Shown here one piece after another: positions 1,568 to 61,681 of a stretch of DNA of 64,000 bases (the stretch's first letter is position 1; each line of letters opens with the position of its first letter). The notes below the pieces were generated by a model that made no database searches, was not told the DNA's origin, and saw only the letters and a list, made by a program, of their open reading frames with translations. Origin of the DNA: a virus; IMG/VR virus record IMGVR_UViG_3300009011_000001, positions 124,001-188,000 of that record. The stretch is one strand, 5' to 3'. The position numbers and the translations under genes were made by a program.

Positions 1568-1581
1568 CAGTCACACATTGC
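1568..1581 (+). promoter_or_regulatory. Promoter-like element (CAGTCACACATTGC)
   Basis: A member of the repeated CAGTMAYACATTAC family, preceded by an A/T-rich stretch and 54 bases before the next start codon. G replaces A in the last triplet. It lies between a terminator-type hairpin and a new gene run. Confidence 0.6.
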
Positions 1582-1634
1582 ACAACTGAATCAAACCCAC
1601 CCTGTTCTTAGGGTTCCGTTGTAGGAGTATAGAC

Positions 1635-1748
1635 ATGAAAGAAGTTACCTTCTTGGCGATCGGTCTCTGTATCGGTCTGTACATTGGCCGTCTGAAAAAC
1701 GCAGTCAATAAGGAGGTCAAGCAACCTTGCCCATGTCCTAAAACTTAA
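1635..1748 (+). CDS. Small single-pass membrane peptide
   Basis: 37 residues, starting at ATG behind TAGGAGT. Residues 5-19 (TFLAIGLCIGLYIGR) form a hydrophobic helix with a GxxxG-like spacing, and the tail holds a short C-P-C-P segment. No family recognised. It is the first gene after a promoter-like motif and one of four small membrane proteins between 1.6 and 3.1 kb. Confidence 0.55.
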   Translation: MKEVTFLAIGLCIGLYIGRLKNAVNKEVKQPCPCPKT

Positions 1749-1757
1749 GCGCTAAAC

Positions 1758-1780
1758 TGCGGGACGCCATACCGTCCCGC
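1758..1780 (+). repeat. Intercistronic hairpin
   Basis: GCGGGACG pairs with CGTCCCGC around a CCATAC-type loop, just ahead of the GAGGAG ribosome site of the next gene. There is no T tract, so it looks more like an mRNA-stability or attenuation element than a full terminator. Confidence 0.45.
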
Positions 1781-1800
1781 ATATTCAGAGGAGTTCCACC

Positions 1801-2283
1801 ATGTTTACAGTTACTCAGAAATACCTTGTAAAGCTGCGTGCCGAGTTCGCACGACTGGATCCGGCTGTCTTCGATAAAGGCATGTGGCAAATCTGCCGTG
1901 CTCTGAACAAGATGCCTGATCTCGTTACCGCGTCCTGCTGCTCGGGCCATGGCGAGCCTGAAAGCACCGCCACTGGTGATTTCTACATCGTCCTGCATGC
2001 AAGCTCTGAGAAGGGCGAGCGTAGCATCGCCAATCTGTACGAATGGTGGTGCAAGTTCCTGGGTACGCAAGTGCTCACGAACGAAGGGATGATGCCGATC
2101 CACCAAACCACCAAACTCGAAGTCAATCGAATCCACGATCGTTTCGAAGAAGGTGAGATCGTCTATGCGTACACGCTCCGTGCCCGCGTCGACAACGATA
2201 TCAACAATTCCGAGCGTCACATCGTTGCCTTTACGAAGGCGGCCGAACGCCTGGGTTTTCTTGATAATCGAAAGACAGCTTAA
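1801..2283 (+). CDS. Uncharacterised 160-residue protein with a CCSGHG motif
   Basis: It starts at ATG behind GAGGAG. Residues 44-52 read TASCCSGHG; a Cys-Cys-Ser-Gly-His cluster of this kind recurs in unannotated phage proteins and could form a metal or catalytic site. The protein is soluble, with mixed alpha/beta character and a tryptophan-rich middle (YEWWCKF). No family assigned. It sits between small membrane-peptide genes. Confidence 0.6.
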   Translation: MFTVTQKYLVKLRAEFARLDPAVFDKGMWQICRALNKMPDLVTASCCSGHGEPESTATGDFYIVLHASSEKGERSIANLYEWWCKFLGTQVLTNEGMMPIHQTTKLEVNRIHDRFEEGEIVYAYTLRARVDNDINNSERHIVAFTKAAERLGFLDNRKTA

Positions 2284-2339
2284 GTCCATCGGTGGACAGT
2301 GAGCTAATCTAACATCCTTTCAAGTCCTTAGGAGGACAC

Positions 2340-2468
2340 ATGAAACAATTCAAAATGGCTTTTCTTGGTTTGGTGTTGGGCGTTGTTGGTGCCGTTGGTT
2401 ATTCCAATGGCATCTTTGACGAAGCAGGTCAGGCAAAAGCCGCTCACGCGGCCTTCGCTAAATCGTAG
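2340..2468 (+). CDS. Small membrane or exported peptide
   Basis: 42 residues behind a perfect TAGGAGGA ribosome site. A lysine-containing start is followed by a hydrophobic, glycine-rich helix (residues 7-21) and an alanine-rich tail. This fits a signal anchor. Function unknown. Confidence 0.55.
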   Translation: MKQFKMAFLGLVLGVVGAVGYSNGIFDEAGQAKAAHAAFAKS

Positions 2469-2480
2469 TTAAAAAAGCTA

Positions 2481-2494
2481 CAAGTACACATTAC
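2481..2494 (+). promoter_or_regulatory. Promoter-like element (CAAGTACACATTAC)
   Basis: It matches the ACACATTAC core and follows an A-rich stretch (AAAAAAGCTA). It lies 43 bases before the next start codon. Confidence 0.6.
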
Positions 2495-2536
2495 TGACGT
2501 AGATGTGATCCATCTTTTGATCTCTGGAGAAGTACC

Positions 2537-2656
2537 ATGCTTAACATCATCGGTCGTATCGCAACTTCCGTTGTAATCGTTGTCGTGTCCTGCATCATCG
2601 TGGACCAAATCAACAAGCATCACCTGGTCGACAAAGCTGTAGAAAAACTGTCGTAA
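2537..2656 (+). CDS. Small membrane peptide
   Basis: 39 residues. A short N-terminal amphipathic segment is followed by a strongly hydrophobic helix (about residues 10-22, ending VSCIIV) and a charged tail. CTGGAGAAGT precedes the start. It is the first gene after a promoter-like motif. Function unknown. Confidence 0.55.
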   Translation: MLNIIGRIATSVVIVVVSCIIVDQINKHHLVDKAVEKLS

Positions 2657-2716
2657 TGCTTTGCGCTAAAACAGCTAACCTTTCGCAATAGAAAATCTGT
2701 CCTAGGAGGACTTTGA

Positions 2717-3079
2717 ATGTCTACTCTCGATATCGTTCTGTGCTTGTCGAACATCGCAATGCTGGTTTTCATGGGCGTGGTTGCAAAGACCATGCTCAAG
2801 AAGGGCGTGGCACTCAAAGAAGTAATCATGGATCTGTGCGCCGTCTTCACCTTCACCATGGGTGAGGACCACAAGGCCACAGTTGCGTCGGTCGTGTCGG
2901 TCGTACTCGGTATGATCGTCTTCAACTACTTCTGGCCAGTTCCAGTCTACACAGGCATGTGGATTGTGTTCTGGGTAGTCGGCTGGATTCTGCAAGCCTA
3001 CGTTCGCCTTAGCACTGGCACGCCATTCGGCAACATGGGTCTGTGGGGCATCAAAGCCATCGCTTCATTCATGAAGTAA
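2717..3079 (+). CDS. Multi-pass membrane protein
   Basis: 120 residues behind TAGGAGGA. There are three hydrophobic segments, at about 5-24, 57-72 and 78-96, separated by short charged loops. No recognised family. With the preceding peptides it forms an early unit of inner-membrane proteins. Confidence 0.65.
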   Translation: MSTLDIVLCLSNIAMLVFMGVVAKTMLKKGVALKEVIMDLCAVFTFTMGEDHKATVASVVSVVLGMIVFNYFWPVPVYTGMWIVFWVVGWILQAYVRLSTGTPFGNMGLWGIKAIASFMK

Positions 3080-3082
3080 AAT

Positions 3083-3129: not shown

Positions 3130-3142
3130 TCGTAAGGACGCC

Positions 3143-4150: not shown

Positions 4151-4153
4151 TAT

Positions 4154-4185
4154 CATACAGCCAGCCCGCAAGGGCTGGCTGTATG
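4154..4185 (+). terminator. GC-rich hairpin with TATGCTG tail
   Basis: The stem CATACAGCCAGCCC/GGGCTGGCTGTATG is identical to that at 1509-1540 with a different loop. It is followed by CTGCTTAAGTATTTT. Confidence 0.7.
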
Positions 4186-4200
4186 CTGCTTAAGTATTTT

Positions 4201-4214
4201 GAGTAATACATTAT
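4201..4214 (+). promoter_or_regulatory. Promoter-like element (GAGTAATACATTAT)
   Basis: A member of the ACATTAC-type family with a final T. It lies 45 bases before the Arc-type gene and directly after a hairpin. Confidence 0.55.
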
Positions 4215-4258
4215 TCGCTTGAACGTCTCGTTCCCAACTAAACAAGGATTTGATTTAA

Positions 4259-4666
4259 ATGCGTCCACTTAAACAAGCTATCTACTCTTCCCGTACTGCA
4301 GACAAGTTCGTTATCCGTCTGCCGGATGGCATGCGTGAACGTATCGCCGAAGTTGCCCGTACCCATCACCGTAGCATGAACTCTGAAATCATCGCTCGGT
4401 TGGAACAAAGCCTTATTCAGGAGGAGAAAGAAAAGAACCCAGCAATGATCGTCGGTCCAGGCGATGATGTCCTGATGCCTGCTGTTGATGCGTGGGTCCC
4501 TGTAGCCGGCATGCTCGTCTGCGAGCGTCTGGATACGTCGAAAGTTTACGGCATTAAAGATTTCGATGTGGATAAAGATGGTAAGCTGTATGCCGTCCTC
4601 GGTTCCCTTAAAGGAGAAGAAGCCAAGATGCTGATTGGGCATCTGCAACCGTTCGTTGTAACTTAA
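4259..4666 (+). CDS. Arc-family (ribbon-helix-helix) DNA-binding protein
   Basis: 135 residues. Residues 14-52 ([20 protein letters not shown]...[14 protein letters not shown]) fit the Arc/Mnt-type ribbon-helix-helix: a beta strand with alternating contact residues, then two helices with an S-x-N-x-E-I-I second helix. The remaining 80 residues form an extra domain. It is preceded by its own promoter-like motif and followed by thymidylate kinase, so it may act as an early transcription regulator. The operator is unknown. Confidence 0.75.
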
Positions 4667-6162: not shown

Positions 6163-6408
6163 ATGGAGCAGACTAAGTTTGTCTCGCTGGTCGAATCTGC
6201 TACAAACATGTTTATCAGTTACACTACGGCGATATTGGCTCAGGTCATTATCTTCCCATTCTACGACGTTCACGTTCAGCTGCATGAGAACATGTCGATG
6301 GCTTTGATCTTCGCCATCATCGGTTTCTTCCGCAACTACGGCGTTCGTCGCCTGTTCAACGCAGCACCATGGGTTAAGTTCAAAGGGGCAAAGAATGCGC
6401 AAAATTGA
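6163..6408 (+). CDS. Small membrane protein of a widespread phage type (DUF7220-like)
   Basis: 81 residues. The start is placed at ATG 6163 because AAAGGA lies upstream. The pattern MEQT..VSLVES.TN.......A.....I.P.......ENM..A.IF.....R.Y..RRLF matches a small two-helix protein common in phages of Proteobacteria. Function unknown. Its last 14 bases overlap the thymidylate synthase start, so the two are translationally coupled. Confidence 0.68.
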   Translation: MEQTKFVSLVESATNMFISYTTAILAQVIIFPFYDVHVQLHENMSMALIFAIIGFFRNYGVRRLFNAAPWVKFKGAKNAQN

Positions 6409-8353
6409 TTCGCAGTACAAAGATCTGTATCGCTTCATTCTTCAGCAAGGTCTGGCCAAGGCTAGCCGCACCGATATCGGCACTACGTCGGCGCTGGGCG
6501 GCTGGATGCGTTTCGATTTGCGTGACGATATCCTCCCGATCACGTCTCTGCGTCTGGTGCGCGAAGAGAAGTTCATCGGGGAGCAACTCTGGTTCGTCTC
6601 CGGCGATCCTTCGATCAAGTTCCTGAAGGACAACAACATCAGCATCTGGGATAGCTGGTTCATCCCAGGAACTGCCGTCTACGAAGACGAACAGCAATGG
6701 CGCCCAATTGTTGATGTGTTGCGGGAAGTATTCCGTTTGAAAATGGGCACTCAAATTTCAAACGATATCGTTTGCCACAAGCTGGCTACCGATACAGGCA
6801 TCTTTGCATTCCACGATCTCTTGTTCTGCATGGGGCTGGAAGATGGAGCTGATCACGTTAATCAGATCCATACCGAAAATGAATGCAACGGCTTCTCGAA
6901 AGAACAGATCGATGCCATTCGTACTCGTGCGACGGCGCTGGGCGTTGATGTGTCCTACTTGCCGAAGAAACCAATCGGCATTATCCAGCGTATTGCGCTG
7001 GCTAACGAAATGGGTCTGGGCGAAGAACTGTTCGAGTATTGCGACGGTCCAATGCCTCGTGAAGAAAAGGACACGATGTACGCGGAAGTAAACGTACAGT
7101 TGTGTCCAGAATTCACCGGCCCGTGGGATCTGTACCAATCCGAACTCGACCACATCGCCGAGTGGCTGACTTCGAAGAACGTTCCTACCGAAGTTCCTGC
7201 GCCACTAAAACCTGTCAGCCTGCAGACTCGTCTGAACCGGATCGACAAGAGCCAGTTCGGTCAGTGGAGCGCGATCAACCAGATCGTCTTCCCGCCTGTA
7301 GAAATGACGGCTGAACCAGCTCCTGAAGTCCGCACCAAAAAAGATGTCTTCGGCGAAGACGTTGTGGTGACGGCAGCGGCTGTGGAGGAAGAACCTCAGC
7401 CGAAACACACGCAGATCGAGATCTACTTCGAAGGTCGTTTCCAGAAAGTCGACATCAGCAAAGAACAGGCTGACGACATCTGGGAAATGATGGACATCAT
7501 GAAGATCCCGGCCTACCGTCTGGTCGACGCCAACATCGGCAAGGGTGGCTACGGCCCTCAGTGGCGTAACTGGCAGGACACTCAGATCGTTGACGGTTCT
7601 GAAGTTGAGCTGTACAAGTCCAAAGGTTACGAGTATGTCACTGAAGTAGACGACCTTGACTTCGGTCATCGTTTCTACGGAAAGGTGGTCATGCACCGCG
7701 ACATCGATCAGTTGGCAAATATGATCGATCTGCTGAAGACCGATCCGGACAACCGCCGCATCATCGTGTCTGCATGGAACCCGGGTCGTACTTGGCAGGC
7801 GGCTCTGCCTCCTTGCCACCTGTACTACCAGTGCGTGACCTACGAGAAAGATCTGCGTGACTACGAGGAAGACTTCGCGAAGCGCGATCTGACCGACAAG
7901 TATCTCGTCGGCCTGACTTCGATTCACGAAGGTGGCGAGCTCGATCCGGAAGATCCTGAAATCGAGAAGAAGTTCTTCGCTGCTGCGAAAGCCTTCGCTA
8001 TCGAGAATGGCATTCCGACTCGTTGGATCAGCATGGGTGTGGTACTGCGCAGCTGGGATACTCCGGCTGGTGGTGTGTTCAACACTCCGCAATACGCGGT
8101 GCTGTTGCGCATGATTGCTCATGTAACCAACATGGATGCTCGTGAACTGTTCATCGTTGGTATCGATGCGCATATTTACGACAACCAAATGGAAGCCATC
8201 GACGAGGTCATTTATACCGACTCTCCAGATGACTGCCCGCGTCTGTTCATCAAACGCGATGTTCAATCGATCGACGACTTCAACATCAGCGACTTCGAGC
8301 TGGTTGGTTATAACCCCGTGCCTAACACGAAGGTCATGCCGATCGCTCGCTAA
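6395..8353 (+). CDS. thyA: Thymidylate synthase with a large internal insertion
   Basis: 652 residues against about 264 in the usual enzyme. The N-terminal part (about 1-90) has the expected RT..GT...GG.MRFDL and ELLWF-type (EQLWFVSGD) segments ending at IWDSW. The catalytic core resumes at about 385 with GPQWR (387-391), then RRI..SAWNP, the active-site PPCH (Cys474), and RSWDTPAGGVFNTPQYA and DAHIYDNQ segments. Roughly 300 residues are inserted between these halves, plus a second smaller insert after the active-site cysteine. The usual NH at the end of the HIY..NH motif is NQ here. It converts dUMP to dTMP using methylene-tetrahydrofolate. Confidence 0.9.
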   Translation: MRKIDSQYKDLYRFILQQGLAKASRTDIGTTSALGGWMRFDLRDDILPITSLRLVREEKFIGEQLWFVSGDPSIKFLKDNNISIWDSWFIPGTAVYEDEQQWRPIVDVLREVFRLKMGTQISNDIVCHKLATDTGIFAFHDLLFCMGLEDGADHVNQIHTENECNGFSKEQIDAIRTRATALGVDVSYLPKKPIGIIQRIALANEMGLGEELFEYCDGPMPREEKDTMYAEVNVQLCPEFTGPWDLYQSELDHIAEWLTSKNVPTEVPAPLKPVSLQTRLNRIDKSQFGQWSAINQIVFPPVEMTAEPAPEVRTKKDVFGEDVVVTAAAVEEEPQPKHTQIEIYFEGRFQKVDISKEQADDIWEMMDIMKIPAYRLVDANIGKGGYGPQWRNWQDTQIVDGSEVELYKSKGYEYVTEVDDLDFGHRFYGKVVMHRDIDQLANMIDLLKTDPDNRRIIVSAWNPGRTWQAALPPCHLYYQCVTYEKDLRDYEEDFAKRDLTDKYLVGLTSIHEGGELDPEDPEIEKKFFAAAKAFAIENGIPTRWISMGVVLRSWDTPAGGVFNTPQYAVLLRMIAHVTNMDARELFIVGIDAHIYDNQMEAIDEVIYTDSPDDCPRLFIKRDVQSIDDFNISDFELVGYNPVPNTKVMPIAR

Positions 8354-11264: not shown

Positions 11265-11708
11265 ATGAACCTCAATGCCGCTTCTTTGTTTGATCAGATC
11301 AAAGCACAGCTCAAAGATCAGCCCGCTTGTGTGCTCACGATCTATCGCTGGTTCTTCGAAAAGGATCAGCACGTCACGGTCGATATTCCGCTTGTCGACA
11401 AGATCCGTCATCTTCAAGGCGACGGCTTCACTTTCACGCTGGTGGAGGTCATGAGTGCAAGCGGTAAGTTGCGCTACCTGCGCACTGACTTGATGATGGC
11501 CTTTCCGAAACCGGTGGTCGTCAAACCTAGCGTTCTCAGCAATAGGTCAGAACTGCAACAGGAAGAACAACCGGTTCTCCCTTTGAGAACCGAGCCTTAC
11601 GTCCTCGGTGGTCGTGTGCCGGAAGCCATGGTCAAGCATCTTCAGAAGAATGCCGGTCTTCCAACCCGCCGCGCCAGCTCTAAAGTCGAGGACGAAGAAG
11701 CAGCATGA
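11265..11708 (+). CDS. Uncharacterised 147-residue protein
   Basis: It starts behind CTGGAG. A folded-looking N-terminal 85 residues are followed by a low-complexity, charged tail (QQEEQPVLPL... KVEDEEAA). The stop overlaps the next start (ATGA). Function unknown. Confidence 0.55.
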   Translation: MNLNAASLFDQIKAQLKDQPACVLTIYRWFFEKDQHVTVDIPLVDKIRHLQGDGFTFTLVEVMSASGKLRYLRTDLMMAFPKPVVVKPSVLSNRSELQQEEQPVLPLRTEPYVLGGRVPEAMVKHLQKNAGLPTRRASSKVEDEEAA

Positions 11709-13469: not shown

Positions 13470-13470
13470 G

Positions 13471-13504
13471 GCATAGAGGCAGGGCGTTTGCCCTGCCTCT
13501 ATGC
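13471..13504 (+). terminator. GC-rich hairpin with TATGCTG tail
   Basis: CATAGAGGCAGGG pairs with CCCTGCCTCTATG, followed by CTGTTTCATTTTCTTTT. Confidence 0.72.
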
Positions 13505-13533
13505 TGTTTCATTTTCTTTTACTTACTTATTTA

Positions 13534-13547
13534 CAGCAATACATTAC
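13534..13547 (+). promoter_or_regulatory. Promoter-like element (CAGCAATACATTAC)
   Basis: An ACATTAC-type motif after a T-rich tract, 32 bases before the first gene of the small charged-protein array. Confidence 0.65.
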
Positions 13548-13578
13548 GGTATAGACAAACGTAACCTGAGGAGGTTTC

Positions 13579-13806
13579 ATGTCTAAATATAATTCTCTTA
13601 GAAAGAAATACGACGGTCCTAAAAACGAGGACGAGGATAACGGTAGCGCCACAGATCCGGATGATAGCTTGGAGGAAAGGGATTTCGTCAGTCTAGACAA
13701 TTACTTTCATCCCAGAGCGCAGGCAGCCGATAGAGATGCAGCCCTGATCACGCGCAGTAAACAACGGGATGCTGACGTCGTCTATACTTTTAGCAGGTTC
13801 AGATAA
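13579..13806 (+). CDS. Small charged array protein 1
   Basis: 75 residues behind GAGGAGG. It starts SKYNSLRKKYD and is rich in D, E, N and R, with a D-R-D triplet near 50 and an aromatic end (VYTFSRF). It is the first of a tandem array of weakly alike proteins sharing an early (L/D)RKK and a late D-x-D/aromatic stretch. The last base overlaps the next start. Function unknown; host take-over or anti-defence is possible. Confidence 0.55.
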   Translation: MSKYNSLRKKYDGPKNEDEDNGSATDPDDSLEERDFVSLDNYFHPRAQAADRDAALITRSKQRDADVVYTFSRFR

Positions 13807-18131: not shown

Positions 18132-19264
18132 TGCCTTTAATCGTTACAGACGAAGATACGAACTTCCTTGTCCAGAATATCAATCTGGCTCGGAAAGTAG
18201 ACAAGCTGCCGGCGATGGTTTATACGCCGGTAATGACCGACGAAGGTCCTCGTCTGATCAAAGGTCGTGAAAGCTTCGAAGTACCTGAAAACCCTCTGGG
18301 CGACCACAACGTCATCCGTGACCTGATCATCAGCGATTACAACAGCGTCAAGTCGCCGGTCGGTGTGATCTTGGTGGGCCTCAAGGGCTCCGGCAAGACC
18401 ATGTTGTCTGAAGACCTGTGCAACAAGATCCTGGAAACCGGTCGCCCTGTACTGAACGTCACCAGCCCTCTGCCGGGCGGTATCCTCTCCACCATGATCG
18501 ACCTGCTCGGGCCATGCGCCGTGCTGTTCGACGAATTCGGTAAAGTCTACGACGACTCCGAGAAACGTAACACTGTGCTGACTCTGTTCAGCGACTCCGA
18601 AAAGCGCAACATCCTCTTTATCGTTACGGCCAACAGCGAGCGCGAATTCGTCGACGCCATGCTGAACCGCCCTGGTCGCTTCAAGTACCGCGTGAACTAC
18701 GACGGTATTAAAGAAAAGACCGTGATGGACACCATCAGCCACAAGGACCATTCCCCTGAGCTGCTCGAGTATCTGCGCCTATATTCGACCTATCACGCGA
18801 TCAGTTACGACATGCTGCTTCTGATGAAGAAGCTGTTGAAGAAGTGCAAGACTCCGCAGGACTTCATCGACAAGATCGAGTTCTACAACCTGCCGGCCAA
18901 GGTCAACGTTCGTTACGGCGTGAAGTCCGTGACCTATGGCGGGAGCACCAGCGAATATAAAGGCTGGATCGATATCCAGGAAGACGGGTCCCTGCAGCTG
19001 GAACTTACCAATGTCGCCAATGGCGAAGTGGTACATAGCCAGAAACTGGTCTGGGCCGATGTAGAAAAGGTCAAGCGCGGCAACTTCTGGCAGCTCAAGT
19101 TCGACGACTCTTTCAAGATCGAGGTGGAACGAGATGTCAGCGAGCACACATTTCGGCCGAAAGAAAGGGATCATGGTACTCCCAAGTATCAAGGGTTCCG
19201 CCACCCGGAAGACGACCTGGAATTCCGTCAAAACGATTACAAGGAACCTGTGAAACGGTTCTAG
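18131..19264 (+). CDS. AAA+ ATPase, paralogue of the 49433 protein
   Basis: 377 residues. Walker A GLKGSGKT (83-90), Walker B VLFDEF (131-136), sensor I around IVTANS (164-169) and NRPGRF (179-184) as an arginine-finger segment. The N-terminal 80 residues and the C-terminal 180 residues (beta-rich, from about 250) are outside the ATPase core. Order, spacing and a matching 'LFSDS.. K..LF.VT.N' stretch make it a paralogue of the ATPase at 49433. Such proteins remodel protein or DNA complexes; the target is unknown. Confidence 0.82.
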   Translation: MPLIVTDEDTNFLVQNINLARKVDKLPAMVYTPVMTDEGPRLIKGRESFEVPENPLGDHNVIRDLIISDYNSVKSPVGVILVGLKGSGKTMLSEDLCNKILETGRPVLNVTSPLPGGILSTMIDLLGPCAVLFDEFGKVYDDSEKRNTVLTLFSDSEKRNILFIVTANSEREFVDAMLNRPGRFKYRVNYDGIKEKTVMDTISHKDHSPELLEYLRLYSTYHAISYDMLLLMKKLLKKCKTPQDFIDKIEFYNLPAKVNVRYGVKSVTYGGSTSEYKGWIDIQEDGSLQLELTNVANGEVVHSQKLVWADVEKVKRGNFWQLKFDDSFKIEVERDVSEHTFRPKERDHGTPKYQGFRHPEDDLEFRQNDYKEPVKRF

Positions 19265-19276
19265 TCAAAAAACGGG

Positions 19277-19290
19277 CAGTAACACATTAC
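19277..19290 (+). promoter_or_regulatory. Promoter-like element inside a hairpin (CAGTAACACATTAC)
   Basis: The motif lies within GGGCAGT...ACTGCCC, a 7-bp inverted repeat, and 38 bases before the next start codon. The hairpin may also end the upstream ATPase transcript. Confidence 0.62.
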
Positions 19291-19327
19291 TGCCCTGATC
19301 TCAACCATCACTCTACCAGGAGTAAGC

Positions 19328-19636
19328 ATGACTACCGTCGTTATTGAAAAACCTACTGATCTGCTGCAATTCGTCGACAACATCAAGCACGACTTCTTCG
19401 ATGAAGGCATGGAAACCGGTCTGAAAACCCGCGTTACCTTCTTCACCGAAAGCGGTCCTGATACCGTCGCCGTCGTCAAATTGAACAAGCCAGTGTCGGA
19501 TCACGTTCACCACATGAACGCCAACCTCGGCCTGGCTCTCGACGAAGCGATCAACGAGATCCGCCGCCAGGAAGGTCTGCAATTCGAAAACACCAGCATC
19601 GTGCTTTCCGAAGAGCTGAACAACCAGGACGAGTAA
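19328..19636 (+). CDS. Uncharacterised acidic 102-residue protein
   Basis: It starts behind CCAGGAG. Soluble, acidic, predicted alternating beta and helix with an ALDEAINEIRRQEG helix. It forms a single-gene unit between a promoter-like motif and a strong hairpin, so it is probably highly expressed early. Function unknown. Confidence 0.6.
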   Translation: MTTVVIEKPTDLLQFVDNIKHDFFDEGMETGLKTRVTFFTESGPDTVAVVKLNKPVSDHVHHMNANLGLALDEAINEIRRQEGLQFENTSIVLSEELNNQDE

Positions 19637-19645: not shown

Positions 19646-19671
19646 GACCAGTGGGCGACGGCCCACTGGTC
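19646..19671 (+). terminator. Hairpin with TTTATGCTG tail
   Basis: GACCAGTGGGC pairs with GCCCACTGGTC across a GACG loop, then TTTATGCTG. Confidence 0.7.
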
Positions 19672-19719
19672 TTTATGCTGCGTAGTACTCGACACTTCTT
19701 CCCACAGGAGAAAGGCAAT

Positions 19720-22688: not shown

Positions 22689-23993
22689 ATGAAAGTCACT
22701 TACCACAAAGTCGAATTCCCGATCGATCAACTTCTCGAACAAAACCTGCCCTGGTCTCGTAATTTCTACACCGATCAGAACGAACTCAAGTCCGACGTCA
22801 CCGACCTGTTCGAGTTCTTCATCAAGAACAAAGACAATCTGCCGTTCTACAACCTGACTGAGCGTGAAGGCGTCCACATCCAACAGGTGGCGAACGCGTC
22901 GTACGAAGTCATGCTGCAAGCCGTGCGGTATGCGTTCGACCACCCTGACCTGATTCGTCAGTACTTCGATTGCAAGATGCTGAACAGCCCGGCTGGCGAT
23001 GCGTTCATCGCGTACGCCAAGTGGACGCTCGGTCAGATCAACATGCGCGGTCAGTCGCTGTACTCTCGCTTCGACATGGCGTTCGATCCGGTCAGTGGTA
23101 CCGTAAAAGGTATCTACGAGCTGAATGCCGATACGCCAACCATGTTGTTCGAATCGACTACGCTGCAGGACGAGTTGGTTCGCCAGATCACGGGCGAAGA
23201 CAATCAGTTCAATAACTGGTTCGAAAACATCGCGGCCACTCTGAAAGAAACTCTGAAGGGTGTGTATAAAGGCAACAAGTTCGGCGTCGTTTTCGATAGC
23301 AACTATATCGAAGACACCACTACCTGCGAGATCATCAGCGATCTGCTGGAAGAGCCGACTGCCTGCATGATGGTCGACATCAAGCACCTGGACTACGAAG
23401 ATCTGCAACCTTCCCGTCCATGGATCGCTTACGAACACACGCTCGATGGCATGTTCATCCTGTCGCCGTGGGAAGAGATGGTCGTCAACTTCCCGAAAGC
23501 CTGGCTGCATTGGGAATCGTGGTGCAACAACGTCGTGGTTATGGAACCGGCCTGGAAATGGTTCATGTCCAACAAAGGCATTTTGGCCCTGGTCAGCGAT
23601 CTGCTTGAAAAGGGCCTCATCGGCCACGGCTTCGAAGCACCTCTGTTACCATTCCTGCACACCAGCCTCAGCCAACACCGCTTCGAAGGTCAGTTCTACG
23701 TCTCTAAGCCGAAGGTCGGCCGGATGTCGAACAACATCACGTTGTACGGCGACGATGGTTACGCGGTGGTTTCCACTGGCGGCGACTACCTCGACGAGAC
23801 CAAGGTCTTCCAGGAATACTGCCCAGCCGGTTCTCTGCGTGAAGGCACTAACTTCATCGTCAGCGTCTGGATGGAAGGTGGAAGTCCGGTCACCAAGATC
23901 GCCAAAGCGACGAACATCGCTATCCGCGAATTCGATACGCATGTGTCGAATGTGCAGAATGAGCGATTCGTTCCTCACGTCGTTGTGGAATGA
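22689..23993 (+). CDS. Glutathionylspermidine-synthase-like ATP-grasp enzyme (YgiC type)
   Basis: 434 residues, full length for YgiC-type proteins. SRFDMAFD (126-133) and ELNADTPTMLFES (144-156) are the family's substrate and ATP-grasp entry motifs. A later 'WKWFMSNKGILALV' (about 289-302) matches the 'P.WK...SNK..L..L' motif, and an ATP-grasp-type end follows. The family ligates peptides such as glutathione to amines; YgiC itself has no settled substrate. The amidase domain of bifunctional Gsp synthase is absent. The long minus-strand frame across it is a shadow. Confidence 0.82.
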   Translation: MKVTYHKVEFPIDQLLEQNLPWSRNFYTDQNELKSDVTDLFEFFIKNKDNLPFYNLTEREGVHIQQVANASYEVMLQAVRYAFDHPDLIRQYFDCKMLNSPAGDAFIAYAKWTLGQINMRGQSLYSRFDMAFDPVSGTVKGIYELNADTPTMLFESTTLQDELVRQITGEDNQFNNWFENIAATLKETLKGVYKGNKFGVVFDSNYIEDTTTCEIISDLLEEPTACMMVDIKHLDYEDLQPSRPWIAYEHTLDGMFILSPWEEMVVNFPKAWLHWESWCNNVVVMEPAWKWFMSNKGILALVSDLLEKGLIGHGFEAPLLPFLHTSLSQHRFEGQFYVSKPKVGRMSNNITLYGDDGYAVVSTGGDYLDETKVFQEYCPAGSLREGTNFIVSVWMEGGSPVTKIAKATNIAIREFDTHVSNVQNERFVPHVVVE

Positions 23994-24166: not shown

Positions 24167-24642
24167 CAAATGCTTTTGATTTGAAATCGTTCTTGGCTGG
24201 GTTTCTGAAGAATCGCCAACAGAAAGGTCCAGAAGAGTCTGTGAAGTATCGGCTCCGAAACCTCGCTGGTGGTCCAGAAGCATTGGAAGGCTACGAGTGG
24301 GTCGTGAATGAAGTAACGATTCCCTGCGTGTCTCAGAATCACGCTGAACGTACAGTTGAGCGTATGCGCCTGGATACTACTCGCGTCGTCGGCACTTCGG
24401 TTATTGAAACAGTTTCTGGTCCGATTGTTCGAGCGTATTTGCTGAATCGTGCGCTCTGCATTCATCAGTTAGATAACATTCCGGTTCGTAAACTGAGTCC
24501 GATTGGCGACACCATGCTGTTTGGCATTGTCAATCCCTCCAAGGCAGTGGTTCGGTACGTTCTCGATGGCGGAACTTCTGAGATCAACATGAACCCCGCT
24601 TTTGAAGCGCCAGTGAACAAACGCACGGCAATACATTACTAG
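24163..24642 (+). CDS. Uncharacterised 159-residue protein
   Basis: GTG 24163 has AAGGAG at proper spacing, whereas the in-frame TTG 24154 directly abuts it. Basic first third, beta-rich later part. The promoter-like motif for the next unit lies inside its last codons. Confidence 0.52.
   Translation: MTNAFDLKSFLAGFLKNRQQKGPEESVKYRLRNLAGGPEALEGYEWVVNEVTIPCVSQNHAERTVERMRLDTTRVVGTSVIETVSGPIVRAYLLNRALCIHQLDNIPVRKLSPIGDTMLFGIVNPSKAVVRYVLDGGTSEINMNPAFEAPVNKRTAIHY
24626..24639 (+). promoter_or_regulatory. Promoter-like element within a gene end (CGGCAATACATTAC)
   Basis: The motif overlaps the last codons of the preceding gene (it encodes A-I-H-Y before the stop) and lies 35 bases before the P-loop gene. 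No hairpin precedes it, so it would add transcription rather than start an isolated unit. Confidence 0.55.
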
Positions 24643-24673
24643 GCTGTATAACAACACAAAGGAGCGTAGTGGG

Positions 24674-25012
24674 ATGACCATCCAGTCTGTGTCTGTAAAG
24701 AAACGTTTACCGCCCGATGAAGAATTGGAGATGGAGATTGAAATCCGTGGCCAGGACGGTGCAGGTAAGACGTTGATTGCCGCCATGCTCCAAGAGACTT
24801 TGGAATTCGCCGGCTTCAAGAACGTCACCATCGTTTCTGCCGTTGGGGATGCCGCAAAGACTCGGCGGCGCCTGAATCGCATTGACCTGCGTGATCAGCG
24901 GTGCCTTAAAACACACATCCGAATTCTGGATGAAGATAAACCCATTGTGAAGGAGGGAGCAGAAAGCCAGTCGAACGGTAGCCTCACTAAACTTCTGAAC
25001 ATATTCCGATAG
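24674..25012 (+). CDS. Short P-loop NTPase-like protein
   Basis: 112 residues. Residues 24-37 (IRGQDGAGKTLIAAML) are a beta strand, P-loop (GQDGAGKT) and helix, as in small nucleotide kinases. The rest is too short for a complete kinase. Similar short P-loop proteins are common in phages and of unknown role. Acidic stretch DEELEMEIE before the P-loop. Confidence 0.62.
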   Translation: MTIQSVSVKKRLPPDEELEMEIEIRGQDGAGKTLIAAMLQETLEFAGFKNVTIVSAVGDAAKTRRRLNRIDLRDQRCLKTHIRILDEDKPIVKEGAESQSNGSLTKLLNIFR

Positions 25013-27599: not shown

Positions 27600-27632
27600 A
27601 GCTCCCCAGCGCATCAGGGGAGCTTTTTTTTG
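27600..27632 (+). terminator. Rho-independent terminator
   Basis: AGCTCCCC pairs with GGGGAGCT around an 8-9 base loop and is followed by eight T residues. Confidence 0.85.
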
Positions 27633-27649
27633 TCTAGGTTATCGGATCT

Positions 27650-27663
27650 CAGTCACACATTAC
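27650..27663 (+). promoter_or_regulatory. Promoter-like element (CAGTCACACATTAC)
   Basis: Full consensus, identical to the copy at 51712. It follows a terminator and lies 38 bases before the next start codon. Confidence 0.7.
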
Positions 27664-27700
27664 CCGCTTAGTATCACTTGACCAATTAGGTAGAATAACG

Positions 27701-28291
27701 ATGCACAAGGCCGCCGCCGCAATGGAACGTCTGGCATTTATTTTTGCAATTCACGAAGACCGTAAAGAGCTCAAGAAAGTCATTACGCGTTTTCGTAAGT
27801 ATTGTTCAAACGCTGTACGCGATGACATCATCAAGACCATTCTTGATGCCCCTAATTACAAAGAGGAGTTCGAACGACTCGACGAACTGTACAGCAAGTT
27901 CAAGCCTTTAGCTACACAGTTTGAAGAAGAAGGGTATCCTGCAATGGTCGTGGTCAATGAAGAGGAGGCTTATCCGATTCAGATCAATATGCGCGATGCT
28001 AAGTCCCGCATGGCCATCTATGAAAACCTGACAGAAGAAGCCGCCAAGGAACAGATCCGCCAAGATCGATTCTGGGCGCTCGGTAACGAATACGAAATGC
28101 AACTCGCTGCAGGGCATTCGGTCATGAACCAGCTGAGTCTCGATAAGCTTTACTTCAAAGTTCAGCTGTTTGAGTCGAAAGGTTTCTCCGGCACGATCGC
28201 TGATCTTGGCGTTGCGCGCATACATGATCGCGTCCTACATAAGCCGGAACAGTCTGCTTATATCAACAGTATTGCAGGGGGAAGGACTTAG
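27701..28291 (+). CDS. Uncharacterised helical 196-residue protein
   Basis: First gene of its unit. Residues 1-75 are helical and basic; 75-196 acidic, with a YPIQINMRDAKSRMAIYENLTEE segment. No family recognised. Confidence 0.58.
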   Translation: MHKAAAAMERLAFIFAIHEDRKELKKVITRFRKYCSNAVRDDIIKTILDAPNYKEEFERLDELYSKFKPLATQFEEEGYPAMVVVNEEEAYPIQINMRDAKSRMAIYENLTEEAAKEQIRQDRFWALGNEYEMQLAAGHSVMNQLSLDKLYFKVQLFESKGFSGTIADLGVARIHDRVLHKPEQSAYINSIAGGRT

Positions 28292-39654: not shown

Positions 39655-39895
39655 ACGTGTAATGTCGGTGACCCATCGTCGCGCATCCATGCCGAAGACT
39701 AGGAAGTGGCTAAGTGTGGTAACCGGCACCTAGAGTTGTACCTGCTTTAAGCCATCGTCGGACGGGATTGTAACTCCCAACCTCAATTTCCCATACGGCC
39801 GAAAAAGCCGGAGTTGGTTAGTGTAGATGGGCCGTAAATCGGTAGCAGGTGGCTAAACAAACATACTGGCCTGCTTCGGCAGGCCTTTATGCTGT
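39655..39895 (+). ncRNA. Second structured non-coding region with its own terminator
   Basis: About 240 bases without a reading frame. ACCTGCT 39740-39746 pairs with AGCAGGT 39844-39850; ACGGCC 39795-39800 with GGCCGT 39830-39835, or a local CGGC/GCCG hairpin; GGGA 39774-39777 with TCCC 39785-39788. It ends in GGCCTGC-TTCG-GCAGGCC-TTTATGCTG (39868-39891). It looks like a stable RNA made with, or next to, the tRNAs. Confidence 0.45.
39868..39891 (+). terminator. Hairpin with TTTATGCTG tail
   Basis: GGCCTGC-TTCG-GCAGGCC followed by TTTATGCTG. It ends the tRNA/RNA region. Confidence 0.75.
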
Positions 39896-39904
39896 AAATA
39901 TTCT

Positions 39905-39918
39905 CATTGATACATTAC
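39905..39918 (+). promoter_or_regulatory. Promoter-like element (CATTGATACATTAC)
   Basis: Perfect ACATTAC core after a terminator, 42 bases before the next start codon. Confidence 0.62.
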
Positions 39919-39959
39919 CTTAATGATACAGGCAGTGTGCTCACCTAGAGGTGTCTATA

Positions 39960-40921: not shown

Positions 40922-40929
40922 TGCATAAG

Positions 40930-40961
40930 GCCCGTGGATTATCCCACGGGCTTTTTTTTTG
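40930..40961 (+). terminator. Rho-independent terminator
   Basis: GCCCGTGG-ATTATC-CCACGGGC followed by at least nine T residues. Confidence 0.85.
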
Positions 40962-40988
40962 TTATGGATTGAATAGGTAACGCCTTTA

Positions 40989-41002
40989 TAATCGTACATT
41001 AC
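40989..41002 (+). promoter_or_regulatory. Promoter-like element (TAATCGTACATTAC)
   Basis: ACATTAC core after TTTATAATCG, 43 bases before the next gene. The 5' half departs from consensus. Confidence 0.55.
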
Positions 41003-41044
41003 TAAGATGATGTCGTAATTACACTGTACCCAAGGAGCTGCACC

Positions 41045-41425
41045 ATGGCTAACTGCACTTGCAAAATAACATCAACGAGCACCGTCGTAGTCAACAACGG
41101 CAAGGCCTATCAGGATGCTTTTGAACGCCCAGACATGCGACTCTACATCCCTGTAGATCGTGAGGGTAAACTTACCGAATTGAGCCGGGCTATCAGCCTC
41201 CAATGCTGGATCACTGGCGAACGTAATCCTCAGATCCCTGAGGCGATGACGATGTCTGCTGAAGGCATCACGGCATCTTTGATCCGCAACCAACACGGTG
41301 ATGAGTTCGGGACTCTGTCTCGCTCGGTAGCCTACGGGTCGATTGCCAAGATGGAACTGTGGTTGCGTACACTACACCGCCACGAGAAAGGCGACATCAC
41401 TAACTTCACTGTTGGCTACCGTTAA
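41045..41425 (+). CDS. Uncharacterised 126-residue protein
   Basis: It starts behind CAAGGAGC. First gene of its unit. Beta-rich with a conserved-looking CTCKITSTSTVVVNNGKAY start. Function unknown. Confidence 0.57.
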   Translation: MANCTCKITSTSTVVVNNGKAYQDAFERPDMRLYIPVDREGKLTELSRAISLQCWITGERNPQIPEAMTMSAEGITASLIRNQHGDEFGTLSRSVAYGSIAKMELWLRTLHRHEKGDITNFTVGYR

Positions 41426-48586: not shown

Positions 48587-48623
48587 CTTACATCCCTGAC
48601 GAGGATGACAGCTAAAAAGATTT

Positions 48624-48637
48624 GAGTCACACATAAC
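48624..48637 (+). promoter_or_regulatory. Promoter-like element (GAGTCACACATAAC)
   Basis: One base off the ACATTAC core. Preceded by AAAAAGATTT and 34 bases before the next gene. Confidence 0.55.
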
Positions 48638-48670
48638 TCACATGAATCAAACCGCAACATTGGGGGCGTC

Positions 48671-49060
48671 ATGGAGTATTTGATCGAAACAATAATCGAC
48701 GGCGTCCATAGTTCTGAGAATAATGCGCTCGCTTGTGCATTGCAGACTGTTGTTTGTGGACGCTATAATCAAAGACTCTGGGCCATACGCACATGGCCCT
48801 TAGACTGCGGGAAATGGAAGTTGGCGTTTTATCACGTCCCTTCTACTGCTCCTGCAGCACACCTCGCTGCTTTCAAAGCCCTACACGAAAGTGGCGAGTT
48901 GGATCACGGACTCGGAGACGAGCAAAGCTGGTGCGTTGGCGTTGGCGAGACCGTGACGCGTTACCGGGACATGGTTCAGATGAAGGTCATGCGAATGTGT
49001 GATGATCGAATCAAGCCTGCCCAAATTCCGCTTTATACACCGCTTACATATACGTCCTAA
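48671..49060 (+). CDS. Uncharacterised 129-residue protein
   Basis: First gene after a promoter-like motif. Alpha/beta, histidine-containing. No family recognised. Confidence 0.57.
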   Translation: MEYLIETIIDGVHSSENNALACALQTVVCGRYNQRLWAIRTWPLDCGKWKLAFYHVPSTAPAAHLAAFKALHESGELDHGLGDEQSWCVGVGETVTRYRDMVQMKVMRMCDDRIKPAQIPLYTPLTYTS

Positions 49061-51690: not shown

Positions 51691-51711
51691 GTATTCCAAC
51701 AGAGATTTGAG

Positions 51712-51725
51712 CAGTCACACATTAC
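51712..51725 (+). promoter_or_regulatory. Promoter-like element (CAGTCACACATTAC)
   Basis: Full consensus, identical to the copy at 27650, 32 bases before the XRE gene. Confidence 0.7.
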
Positions 51726-51756
51726 CTCATTGTCTAACCAAACCAGTGAGGTAATT

Positions 51757-52502: not shown

Positions 52503-52733
52503 TTTTCAACGAACTCTGAACATGTAATGGAGCGTGGGGGAACCTAGGAGCGAAGCGACGACGGAGGGGGCTAATAAATAGCGAGGATGACAACAGGAAT
52601 CCTCTTCTTTATTGCAATGAAACGTAGATGGATGTAATTCATCGAAGTGGAATTTAATCTCTCCAAATGGCGAAGCTATTTGGCTCTGATGTTGCTCTAT
52701 TACACGTTAGGGGAAAATGACCAGGAAGCAAGC
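52503..52733 (+). other. Gene-poor interval
   Basis: No convincing gene. A GAGGAT/ATCCTC hairpin followed by TTCTTT (52582-52610) may end the XRE unit. A G-rich stretch (GGAGCGTGGGGG) precedes it. An in-frame extension of the next gene from 52647 would start without a good ribosome site. Confidence 0.4.
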
Positions 52734-54594: not shown

Positions 54595-54627
54595 CATACA
54601 GCCCGGCCGTAGTGGCCGGGCTGTATG
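54595..54627 (+). terminator. Hairpin between convergent genes
   Basis: CATACAGCCCGGCC pairs with GGCCGGGCTGTATG, followed by CTGTCTTCTTTCTTTTTG on the plus strand. It lies between converging units and, being symmetric, could stop transcription from both sides. Confidence 0.72.
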
Positions 54628-54645
54628 CTGTCTTCTTTCTTTTTG

Positions 54646-60000: not shown

Positions 60001-60521
60001 ATGCATTTCTTCGCACCCAAACAGTGGGCGAGGATCAGCTGAGTAACGGTCTTGCCTGTACCGGCACCGGCATCGAGCATGTAGCCACGCAGACGATAAG
60101 CAGGAACCAACTTACCGACGTGGCGCACAAACTCACGCTGGAAAGGCTTGAGCGGGAACGGAACAAGGTGGTCAAGATCCTTCTCGTTGGTGATGGACTT
60201 GACTTCACGTTCTACGTCACCAACCCAGGTCTTTTCCTTGAGTTCGTGAATGATCTTTGCAAGCACACGACGGGAACTGCGGGTCTGTGGATCATCAAGC
60301 AGTTTCTCGCAAATGTACTTGAAGTCCAATGCGAAGAAGTGAAGGAACCGAAGCTTACCGCTCTGGATAACCGAGAACATCTGGTTACCGACCTGATTGC
60401 TACCCCAGATACGATACATGTCCTTCAACAGGATGAATGTCTCAATACCCTCCACGGTGATGTACTTGGGGGTGGAGGAAACGTCCACAATCCCAAGCGT
60501 CTTTTTAATAGATGAAAACAT
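57096..60521 (-). CDS. SNF2-like (SF2) helicase with a large C-terminal domain
   Basis: 1141 residues; ATG at 60521 behind AGGAG. Helicase motifs: Q-like 'LKPFQREFV', Walker A DAGAGTGKT (150-158), DESH (245-248), ASGTP (276-280), 'LIFTSF' (about 505) and QTIARAARLGQ (588-598), the SNF2-type order. Residues from about 650 carry no helicase motif. They include 'GESFESLGDIITDIKKWFQGPSQ', resembling the amphipathic block of the inner-head proteins, and an 'NPTWVKKQ' stretch. Its place in the inner-head gene block suggests a virion-associated helicase used at genome entry or packaging. The helicase call is firm; the virion role is inference. Confidence 0.8.
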   Translation of the reverse strand: MFSSIKKTLGIVDVSSTPKYITVEGIETFILLKDMYRIWGSNQVGNQMFSVIQSGKLRFLHFFALDFKYICEKLLDDPQTRSSRRVLAKIIHELKEKTWVGDVEREVKSITNEKDLDHLVPFPLKPFQREFVRHVGKLVPAYRLRGYMLDAGAGTGKTVTQLILAHCLGAKKCIVIVPKNSAERVWQDTIAHIMLMKKPYWVSTDGKPLTTDAYYYVVHYEQLQQMLDFVKAHPRDFEGSYLGLDESHNFNRIASDRTQAFIDLAGMPQMMMNLWASGTPIQALGVECIPFLKCIDPMFNDEAEERFRKIYGRDAKRANDILRNRIGHLKYHVPKQDVVDIPIHTQTVLVKMPNAHEYTLEAIGEKMRKFIMEREAFYEKHKAEFKADYERALTYFEQHAHFNKADYAAYKAAVALISKGFDPKLMKAEAQLANSFERKVIIPTLPNTMKEDFRKAKSVVKYVNLTIMGECLGTILGGSRSKCHLEMVENIDFSMLIDGAVKKTLIFTSFVEVLERAASLIDQKGYQTARVYGATNKDLSKIVKDFYENDDINPLLATYPSLSTAVPLTVASRILMINQPFRDAIRTQTIARAARLGQDTAVDVVDLLLDTGDKPNISTRSNDIMQWSAEMTASILGVANVDLDSMQLESKNLLLNELIEYAEESFDNQWLGGPAAPVSVKQEFVEPMTNLPPYLFHSSAYKQNELKPGFKHSGVLVKWDKTEDNTWLYAADKKDEAIMLGISSAIEKKWDLSRYKYDAKTRRLDIEVCDQTITKADIEKLSVYIYTLRPEAEDGWVENFNPVNGLKGEYKTQGTIHDNILRCETVDVHAALRGYTINIKQVAGESFESLGDIITDIKKWFQGPSQKDIHKEAIPRDDYPIAEQKKVDEYLKQFFGNPTWVKKQQFNTEVAAAGIVQPLSYEGKFNASTAFSDIEKGIAGFIQQAGSYSALLKQTDDKVQATFTKYEGPLTKAIHAGNHDEVEKLCADANKEFDLIGKHHPAQQAIGKKYVFMGGWNPAIVKSNNAYGMEVRPGKEHKVEGVTKIPALNAEQIGKAVAIIDQCFQNIKGQKGALHFGWLDFEAEDVWSLLQDFDEPLYMDYAEHWYHQRVSEELEYGFPYYNRWYSDIIIALLHWMDRSVK

Positions 60522-60572
60522 ACGGGCTCCTAGTCTGCAGTGCTGCGGTCGGTACTTAAAGTCATAAAATCA

Positions 60573-60938
60573 CTATTTGTCATCTTCGGGGATATCGACC
60601 ATCGACATCGTCTGTCCTTTAAGGTGGTGGGTGCAGTCACCAAGGAAGATGAGGTTTCCATCCCGGATGAAGAAATGGCAGGTATAAGGCCGGGGTTCGA
60701 TCTTCCCTCCTGTCATCAGAATGTCGCGTTCTTCATCGGTGATTCTTGCAGTTCCGTTGATTAACAGACTAGGCGAAAACGTAGGTTCTTTGACGCACAT
60801 GTTCCAGCCCCAAGAGGCCTGCTTGTTATCCGGATGTTCCAGATACACGTTGTGCATCAGTTTGCAGCCAGGGCAATAGAACGACAATGTGTAGCTGTTT
60901 ATTTGAAGCAAGATAGGCGACAGTTCTTTTATACTCAT
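60573..60938 (-). CDS. DUF6527-like cysteine/histidine protein
   Basis: 121 residues; ATG at 60938. 'FYCPGCKLMHNVYL', 'ASWGWN', 'EPTFSPSLL', 'CHFFIRDGNLIFLGDCTHHLKGQT' match the DUF6527 pattern (FYCPGC...H; W.W.G; PTFSPS; CH.FI..G.I.FL.DC.H.L.G). Likely a metal site built from C, H and D. The family occurs in many phages without known function. It is divergent with the acetyltransferase gene. Confidence 0.72.
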   Translation of the reverse strand: MSIKELSPILLQINSYTLSFYCPGCKLMHNVYLEHPDNKQASWGWNMCVKEPTFSPSLLINGTARITDEERDILMTGGKIEPRPYTCHFFIRDGNLIFLGDCTHHLKGQTMSMVDIPEDDK

Positions 60939-60967
60939 GATTGCTATGTCCCAGAGAGGAGATCGTA

Positions 60968-61396
60968 ATGGATAACAAGGCTGAAGCAAAAAGGCTGATT
61001 GAACTTGCACTAAAAGACCCACGGCTTGGACGACCAGCTCTGACGGCAGATATCAACCAACTGGAATGGATCTACCTCGAAGGCAAACCAGTCGGCTTCT
61101 TCACCCCTAAGCTTGAACCAGATGGACGATACAGAACCGGCACCATCTTTATTGAACCATCTCACCGTGGTAAAGGATTAGCTACAGATGTAGTAAAGAA
61201 GTATTTTGACGACGGTGATAAACCGGGCCGTGCTTGGATTGAACCCAGTAATCTGGCTAGCCAAACTATCTTCAAACGAGCAGGCTTTTATAAGTCTGGT
61301 CGCGTCACTAACTCGAAAGCAACATCACGAATGTTTGAAGAATGGGTGAACAAACCTATCCCTCCTCTTGTGAGTCGACCAGTGTTAGGTTGGTGA
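60968..61396 (+). CDS. GNAT acetyltransferase
   Basis: 142 residues from ATG 60968 behind GAGAGGAG. 'GTIFIEPSHRGKGLATDVVKKYF' is the beta4-alpha3 region with an R-G-K-G-L-A acetyl-CoA pyrophosphate loop, and 'AWIEPSNLASQTIFKRAGFYKSG' is the usual N-x-x-(A/S)...F...GF end. It would transfer an acetyl group from acetyl-CoA to an amine. The target (host protein, small molecule or tRNA) is unknown. Confidence 0.8.
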   Translation: MDNKAEAKRLIELALKDPRLGRPALTADINQLEWIYLEGKPVGFFTPKLEPDGRYRTGTIFIEPSHRGKGLATDVVKKYFDDGDKPGRAWIEPSNLASQTIFKRAGFYKSGRVTNSKATSRMFEEWVNKPIPPLVSRPVLGW

Positions 61397-61419
61397 TAAG
61401 TTACATTATATGTGTAGAC

Positions 61420-61645
61420 AGATCACGCCCATCCATCCTGCTCCTGGATGGGCTACTTGTGGTCAGGACATTCCCCCTGACCGATGGTCATTGCCATTCC
61501 TGGTCGTGTGGCAGTGACTGCTAAGTATCACTTAGCCTACAGGGCAATCGTCGTGGGAGTGGATTGCTCTGTAGGGTGTGTGGTGTGTGGCGATGGTGGT
61601 GAGCGGAAAGCATAGGGCGGAGCGCAAGCTCCGCCTTTATGCCGT
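61420..61645 (+). ncRNA. Array of six hairpins: structured RNA with its own terminator
   Basis: No reading frame. Hairpins: 61427-61453 (9 bp), 61460-61482 (7 bp), 61487-61518 (10 bp), 61521-61535 (5 bp), 61536-61575 (14 bp with one G-T pair) and the terminator 61610-61642. Loops of 9-12 bases are exposed. The regular spacing and near-perfect stems suggest selection on RNA structure. It may be a sponge or decoy RNA. Confidence 0.6.
61610..61642 (+). terminator. GC-rich hairpin with TTTATGCCG tail
   Basis: GGCGGAGC-GCAA-GCTCCGCC, with GCATA/TATGC outer pairs, then CGTTATAG. Confidence 0.7.
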
Positions 61646-61668
61646 TATAGTTCGATTTAAAAAACTCT

Positions 61669-61681
61669 CAGTAATACATAC
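61669..61681 (+). promoter_or_regulatory. Promoter-like element (CAGTAATACATAC)
   Basis: One T shorter than consensus. It lies after a hairpin and an A-rich stretch (TTTAAAAAACTCT), 44 bases before the next gene. Confidence 0.55.

What the first reader, a model, noticed from the sequence alone, without database searches (positions are those of the whole stretch)
1568..61681. Twelve copies of one promoter-like motif at a fixed distance before gene starts
A 14-base element of consensus CAGTMAYACATTAC occurs at 1568, 2481, 4201, 13534, 19277, 24626, 27650, 39905, 40989, 48624, 51712 and 61669. Every copy is on the plus strand, most follow a hairpin, and each lies 32-54 bases before a start codon. 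There is no -35/-10 pair of host type. The TATATTAC-like core of phiKZ-group early promoters, read by the virion RNA polymerase, is similar in its last six bases (family knowledge). I infer that these are early promoters with a sequence specific to this phage.
Basis: partly seen in the sequence, partly recalled or inferred. Interest (0 to 1): 0.72.

Follow-up and report, generated by a model that had tools for sequence, protein, structure and literature searches.

The report
Early promoters of a phiKZ-like jumbo phage
The repeated motif is this giant nucleus-forming phage's set of early-gene start signals, almost certainly read by the RNA polymerase carried inside the virus particle; it is a new sequence version of promoters already known from phage phiKZ and its relatives.

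Summary
All 12 copies are where stated, on the plus strand and 32-54 nt before a start codon. The 14-mer alone is weak in the window (19 matches at up to 3 mismatches, 11.5 expected). The full element is not: over the 248,574-base record a 38-column matrix finds 27 sites, all on the plus strand and all in the 9% that is non-coding. In a leave-one-out test, 26 of 27 outscore every other position on both strands.

The element has two blocks: A-n-T-n-AAA near -34 to -28, and the core CAGTCACACATTAC at -20 to -7; then N5, T and G at the inferred +1. Early promoters that I rebuilt from phiKZ have the same blocks and spacings, with TATATTAC in place of YACATTAC. The record encodes homologues of both phiKZ polymerases. 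The promoters precede the nuclear-shell (chimallin) gene and the non-virion polymerase operons, as in phiKZ. Sites are conserved in relatives.

So "early promoter for the virion polymerase" is very likely right. It is a new member of a known kind: such motifs are published for several phiKZ-like phages, and phage EL already shows TACATTAT. No transcript start was mapped. Side observation: a family-wide terminator-like hairpin with a TATGYY tail.

The parts
1554..1588 (+). Early promoter: upstream A/T block, core 1568-1581 CAGTCACACATTGC, inferred +1 G at 1588; 47 nt before ATG 1635
2467..2501 (+). Early promoter, core 2481-2494 CAAGTACACATTAC, inferred +1 (A) at 2501; 36 nt before ATG 2537; kept in relative G014
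4187..4221 (+). Early promoter, core 4201-4214 GAGTAATACATTAT, +1 G 4221; before Arc-like regulator ORF 4259-4666; kept in G014
13520..13554 (+). Early promoter, core 13534-13547 CAGCAATACATTAC, +1 G 13554; before ORF 13579-13806
19263..19297 (+). Early promoter, core 19277-19290 CAGTAACACATTAC, +1 G 19297; before ORF 19328-19636; kept at same distance in G014
24612..24646 (+). Early promoter, core 24626-24639 CGGCAATACATTAC, +1 G 24646; before ORF 24674-25012
27636..27670 (+). Early promoter, core 27650-27663 CAGTCACACATTAC, +1 (A) 27670; before ORF 27701-28291
39891..39925 (+). Early promoter, core 39905-39918 CATTGATACATTAC, +1 G 39925; before ATG 39960
40975..41009 (+). Early promoter, core 40989-41002 TAATCGTACATTAC, +1 G 41009; before ORF 41045-41425; kept in G014
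48610..48644 (+). Early promoter, core 48624-48637 GAGTCACACATAAC, +1 G 48644; before ORF 48671-49060; kept in G014
51698..51732 (+). Early promoter, core 51712-51725 CAGTCACACATTAC, +1 G 51732; before ATG 51757; kept in G001
61655..61689 (+). Early promoter, core 61669-61682 CAGTAATACATACT, +1 G 61689; before ATG 61725
1509..1543 (+). Terminator-like GC hairpin with TATGCTG tail, end of the upstream operon
4154..4188 (+). Terminator-like GC hairpin with TATGCTG tail
13470..13506 (+). Terminator-like GC hairpin with TATGCTG tail
27601..27631 (+). Hairpin with T tract upstream of the 27650 promoter
   Evidence: read from sequence
39868..39894 (+). Terminator-like GC hairpin with TATGCTG tail
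40927..40962 (+). Hairpin with T tract upstream of the 40989 promoter
61614..61644 (+). Terminator-like GC hairpin with TATGCCG tail

Best explanation
The copies are early promoters of a phiKZ-like, nucleus-forming jumbo phage (Chimalliviridae-type), read by the multisubunit RNA polymerase carried in the virion. Shown: a stereotyped 35-bp element (A-n-T-n-AAA block about 34 to 28 bp upstream, core CAGTCACACATTAC at -20 to -7, then N5-T-G) stands at 27 intergenic places, always on the plus strand, mostly 25-47 nt before a start codon. Inferred: the injected polymerase binds both blocks, melts the core, and starts RNA at the G. This makes the first mRNAs, including those for the nuclear shell protein and the non-virion polymerase that later takes over; hairpins upstream end the preceding operon.
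For: 27 sites, all plus strand and intergenic; none on the minus strand at equal score. 26 of 27 held-out sites outscore every other position in the record. phiKZ early promoters rebuilt de novo (33 sites, all plus) have the same blocks at the same spacing: A, n, T, n, AAA / A / ATATTAC / N5 / T / G. Published AR9 early layout is motif-(6N)-G+1, and conserved starts lie 6 nt downstream in phiKZ and phiR1-37 (PMC5312081). Both polymerase sets are encoded. Promoters precede chimallin (phrog_4795, E 7e-36), the gp68 homologue, the gp71-74 operon and the gp123 operon, as in phiKZ. Relatives keep the site upstream of 14 of 23 orthologues of motif genes against 6 of 201 controls, often at the same distance. 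Promoter presence agrees between orthologues in this phage and DT01 (Fisher P 8e-6). A generic two-block pattern hits 11 of 12 phiKZ-like genomes, on one strand only in each, reversed control zero in all.
Against: No transcript data; the start site and timing are by homology. Three of the 27 sites have A, not G, at +1. With phiKZ itself the formal orthologue test had only two motif genes with hits (P 0.03). For 9 of 23 orthologues the relative lacks a recognisable site. The core is less AT-rich than the published description of such motifs.
Confidence: 0.94

Rival explanations
1. The element is a middle or late promoter read by the phage's non-virion RNA polymerase.
For: The record encodes that polymerase, and some genes with the element could be expressed throughout infection.
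Against: phiKZ late promoters have only TATG at the start site and middle promoters an AAAATTACC-like motif near -24 (PMC4666361, PMC7598289). phiKZ non-virion polymerase gave robust transcription only from the late promoter, not from the early one, in vitro (PMC4666361). The element stands before the non-virion polymerase genes themselves, and none of the virion genes identified by homology is first in line behind it.
Confidence: 0.03
2. Host RNA polymerase reads the element, with a host or phage sigma factor or activator.
For: Two blocks about 35 and 10 bp upstream of a start look superficially like a bacterial promoter; related phages phiRSL2 and phiRSF1 need host polymerase for growth (PMC5468394).
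Against: No sigma-70 pair at any site, and such pairs are under-represented. The same grammar occurs in phages of Pseudomonas, Burkholderia, Xanthomonas, Erwinia and Proteus.
Confidence: 0.02
3. The element is not a promoter but an RNA or DNA signal (mRNA 5'-end processing, replication or packaging site) that happens to lie before genes.
For: Fixed strand and position before start codons would also fit a 5'-leader element.
Against: Identity of layout with mapped early promoters of AR9 and phiKZ; conserved T-G pair where their start sites lie; hairpins ending just upstream of several copies.
Confidence: 0.01

Closest known systems
phiKZ early promoters (TATATTAC; 28 reported, PMC13282480)
   Same: Two-block layout, spacing, ATTAC-N5-TG end, one strand only, position before the chimallin, gp68, gp71-74 and gp123 operons
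   Different: Core YACATTAC with a CAGT lead instead of TATATTAC with a TTTAAGATC-type lead; genome about 51% G+C against 37%
Predicted early promoter of Pseudomonas phage EL, WTTTYAAACCTACATTATY (PMC7058600 Table 2)
   Same: TACATTAY core with C at the same place
   Different: Different spacer; not compared here on the EL genome
Predicted promoters of 201phi2-1, OBP and N1M2 (PMC7058600 Table 2)
   Same: A-rich upstream block and ATATTAY core followed closely by TG
   Different: ATAT instead of ACAT in the core
Pseudomonas phage pPa_SNUABM_DT01 (nearest isolate found; motif derived here)
   Same: ATTCGAA block, CARCGATACATKAT, N5, TG; same operons
   Different: Core ends KAT, not TAC; about 35% identity in a non-virion polymerase protein
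AR9 early promoter AAATATATATTAT-(6N)-G (PMC5312081)
   Same: Core to start-site spacing and G start
   Different: Very AT-rich, uracil-DNA phage, no nucleus

Membership tests
Early (virion-polymerase) promoters of phiKZ-like jumbo phages | Conserved motif overrepresented before presumed early operons, not in genes | tested here: met
   27 sites, all intergenic, zero on minus strand at equal score
Early (virion-polymerase) promoters of phiKZ-like jumbo phages | Conserved start nucleotide 6 nt downstream of the core (motif-6N-G) | tested here: met
   G 7 nt after core end in 23 of 25 strong sites, preceded by T in 18 of 25; layout in PMC5312081
Early (virion-polymerase) promoters of phiKZ-like jumbo phages | AT-rich core of about 10 nt centred near -10 | tested here: inconclusive
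   Position fits, but YACATTAC is only moderately AT-rich; EL has a similar C (PMC7058600)
Early (virion-polymerase) promoters of phiKZ-like jumbo phages | Genome encodes virion and non-virion multisubunit polymerases | tested here: met
   Homologues of gp80, 149, 178, 180 and of gp55, 68, 71, 73, 74, 123; gp176 homologue not tested
Early (virion-polymerase) promoters of phiKZ-like jumbo phages | Drives nuclear shell and non-virion polymerase genes | tested here: met
   Sites at record 68618, 78884, 83912 and 214366 stand before them; expression itself not tested
Early (virion-polymerase) promoters of phiKZ-like jumbo phages | Transcripts start here minutes after infection, rifampicin- and translation-independent | not testable with these tools
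   Metagenomic record, no RNA data
Host sigma-70 promoters | TTGACA / TATAAT pair with 16-18 nt spacing at the sites | tested here: not met
   No pair overlies a motif site (the last 4 kb of the window was not scanned)

The most novel reading that the evidence does not exclude
Nucleus-forming jumbo phages share a family-wide punctuation code. One part is a two-block early promoter whose -34/-28 block is a specific contact for the sigma-less virion polymerase, with core variants (TATAT, YACAT) that track lineages. The other is an unreported terminator, a GC hairpin with a TATGYY tail in place of a U tract, whose TATG is the same tetranucleotide the phiKZ non-virion polymerase needs for late initiation.
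Probability: 0.3. Interest if true: 0.6.

Novelty: new member of a known kind. Interest (0 to 1): 0.36.

Why it matters
It gives a map of 27 early promoters, and so of the early operons, for an uncultured nucleus-forming phage and its relatives. It also shows that the recognition grammar of the virion polymerase (two blocks, fixed spacing, G start) is kept across the family while the core letters drift. That gives natural variants with which to ask how an RNA polymerase without a known sigma subunit finds promoters, which is an open question for this enzyme.

Tried and rejected
The 14-mer alone at up to 3 mismatches in the window: too close to chance to rest on, replaced by a full matrix over the record. 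Megablast of the first 25 kb of the window against phage records: no match. Search of the chimallin-position protein against PDB sequences: no match, but PHROG and a profile against phiKZ gp54 identify it. A motif scan over IMG/VR gave 12 contigs, several of which look like chance matches; only contigs syntenic with this record (G001, G002, G003, G011, G014) were used. The idea that late phiKZ promoter P119L sits on a hairpin with TATG: no obvious hairpin seen there. The 4 minus-strand and some low-scoring plus-strand hits in DT01 look like false positives of the iterated matrix. Gene calls are from a home-made caller and missed at least one gene (ORF at window 48671); distances were checked against ORFs.

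Full report
What the window is. The window is bases 124001-188000 of a 248,574-base virus record. The record's first 30 bases recur 123 bases before its end, so it is probably a complete circularised assembly. Its SNF2/DEAD helicase and RNA polymerase proteins are closest to phiKZ-like jumbo phages, at about 30-43% identity; the nearest isolate for the polymerase protein is Pseudomonas phage pPa_SNUABM_DT01. tblastn with phiKZ proteins finds homologues of PhuZ, TerL, the major capsid protein, the virion polymerase subunits gp80, gp149, gp178 and gp180, and the non-virion polymerase subunits gp55, gp68, gp71, gp73, gp74 and gp123. The gene just before the gp55 homologue is the nuclear shell protein, chimallin (phrog_4795, E = 7e-36; profile match to phiKZ gp54, E = 1e-26 in a one-sequence search).

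The observation. All 12 copies are exact, on the plus strand, and 32-54 nt before a start codon. The 14-mer alone, at the mismatch level needed to include all 12, is close to chance in the window. The flanks settle it. An iterated 38-column matrix scanned on both strands of the whole record converges on 25 sites, with two weaker ones added. All 27 are on the plus strand and all lie in the 9.1% called non-coding; the minus strand has nothing at comparable score. Leave-one-out: 26 of 27 held-out sites outrank every other position on both strands. Genes are 226 plus and 63 minus in my calls, so gene orientation alone does not explain 27 to 0. The median distance from inferred start to start codon is 35.5 nt, with 20 of 26 at 25-47 nt.

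What it is. Seeding the same procedure in phiKZ with TATATTAC gives 33 sites, all plus strand (28 early promoters are reported in PMC13282480). Their consensus is A-T-T-n-A-A-A, a TTTnARA stretch, TATATTAC, N5, T, G. Laid on the present element with cores in register, the A, T and AAA of the upstream block, the A about 6 nt before the core, the ATTAC and the T-G all fall on the same positions. Published work states that each jumbo phage of this group has its own conserved motif before presumed early operons, that the start lies 6 nt below the core in phiKZ, phiR1-37 and AR9, and that early transcription in phiKZ and AR9 does not need protein synthesis (PMC7598289, PMC5312081). Published predictions for 201phi2-1, OBP, N1M2 and EL have the same look, and EL already has TACATTAT (PMC7058600). 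This is why I call it a new member of a known kind and not a new variant.

Gene logic. Promoters stand 212 nt before chimallin, which is followed by the gp55 homologue; 29 nt before the gp68 homologue; 31 nt before the gp71-73/gp74 operon; and 88 nt before a gene that precedes the gp123 homologue. The corresponding phiKZ operons carry phiKZ early promoters. The polymerase that takes over later is thus placed under the early one in both phages. None of the virion genes identified by homology (TerL, capsid, sheath, protease, virion polymerase) is the first gene behind a site. That last point was read off the tables and not tested formally.

Conservation. In syntenic IMG/VR relatives, 14 of 23 orthologues of motif genes keep a site (5 bits or more) within 300 nt upstream, against 6 of 201 control genes. 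At least two of those six control hits are the same sites seen from a neighbouring gene. Distances are often identical or nearly so (212/214, 76/76, 31/31, 35/35). DT01 (56% G+C) has its own set of about 29 plus-strand sites with ATTCGAA, CARCGATACATKAT, N5, TG, and promoter presence agrees between orthologues (Fisher P = 8e-6). A generic two-block pattern made from phiKZ and this phage hits 11 of 12 phiKZ-like records. In each, all hits are on one strand, and the reversed pattern hits none. Nine of those 11 records were not used to make the pattern.

Hairpins. About 8 of 12 copies follow a hairpin. The hairpins look like terminators of the preceding operon. Many have an unusual tail: 39 GC hairpins in the record run directly into TATGC[TC]G, 38 of them intergenic, most 22-66 nt after a same-strand gene end. 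The same holds in phiKZ, DT01, FLC9 and Ea35-70: 27-46 hairpins per genome or 200 kb with TATGYY, against 1-4 at random places, and more than carry a T5 tract. I found no report of this in the papers I could search, but most subscription papers are not held, so it may be known.

What is shown and what is inferred. Shown: the element, its extent, strand, placement, conservation and identity of layout with phiKZ-type early promoters.

Noticed in passing
window 1509-1543, 4154-4188, 13470-13506, 19646-19680, 39868-39894, 54595-54630, 61614-61644; record-wide: GC hairpins with a TATGC[TC]G tail instead of a T tract stand after gene ends (39 in the record, 38 intergenic); TATGYY tails are also enriched at hairpins in phiKZ, DT01, FLC9 and Ea35-70. 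Probably a family-wide terminator, possibly undescribed; TATG is also the phiKZ late-promoter element.
   Followed up: partly
record 57527 (locus L012 position 17527); G011 position 52526: One promoter lies so that its transcript would run antisense through a 290-codon minus-strand ORF before reaching PhuZ; the site is kept in relative G011, while in DT01 the promoter is 30 nt before PhuZ.
   Followed up: partly
record 9862 (locus L010 position 9862); G011 position 11415: A weak copy (10.7 bits) inside a gene is also present upstream of the orthologue in G011 (16.2 bits): perhaps an internal early promoter.
   Followed up: no
window 1-60000: Sigma-70-like promoter pairs are rarer than in shuffled sequence (19 found, about 47 expected), as if selected against.
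   Followed up: no
window 4259-4666: The gene behind the promoter at 4201 is an Arc-like transcriptional regulator (phrog_38161, E 8e-26), a candidate early regulator.
   Followed up: no
window 22689-23993 and 6395-8353: Glutathionylspermidine synthase-like gene (phrog_6215) and a long thymidylate synthase gene.
   Followed up: no
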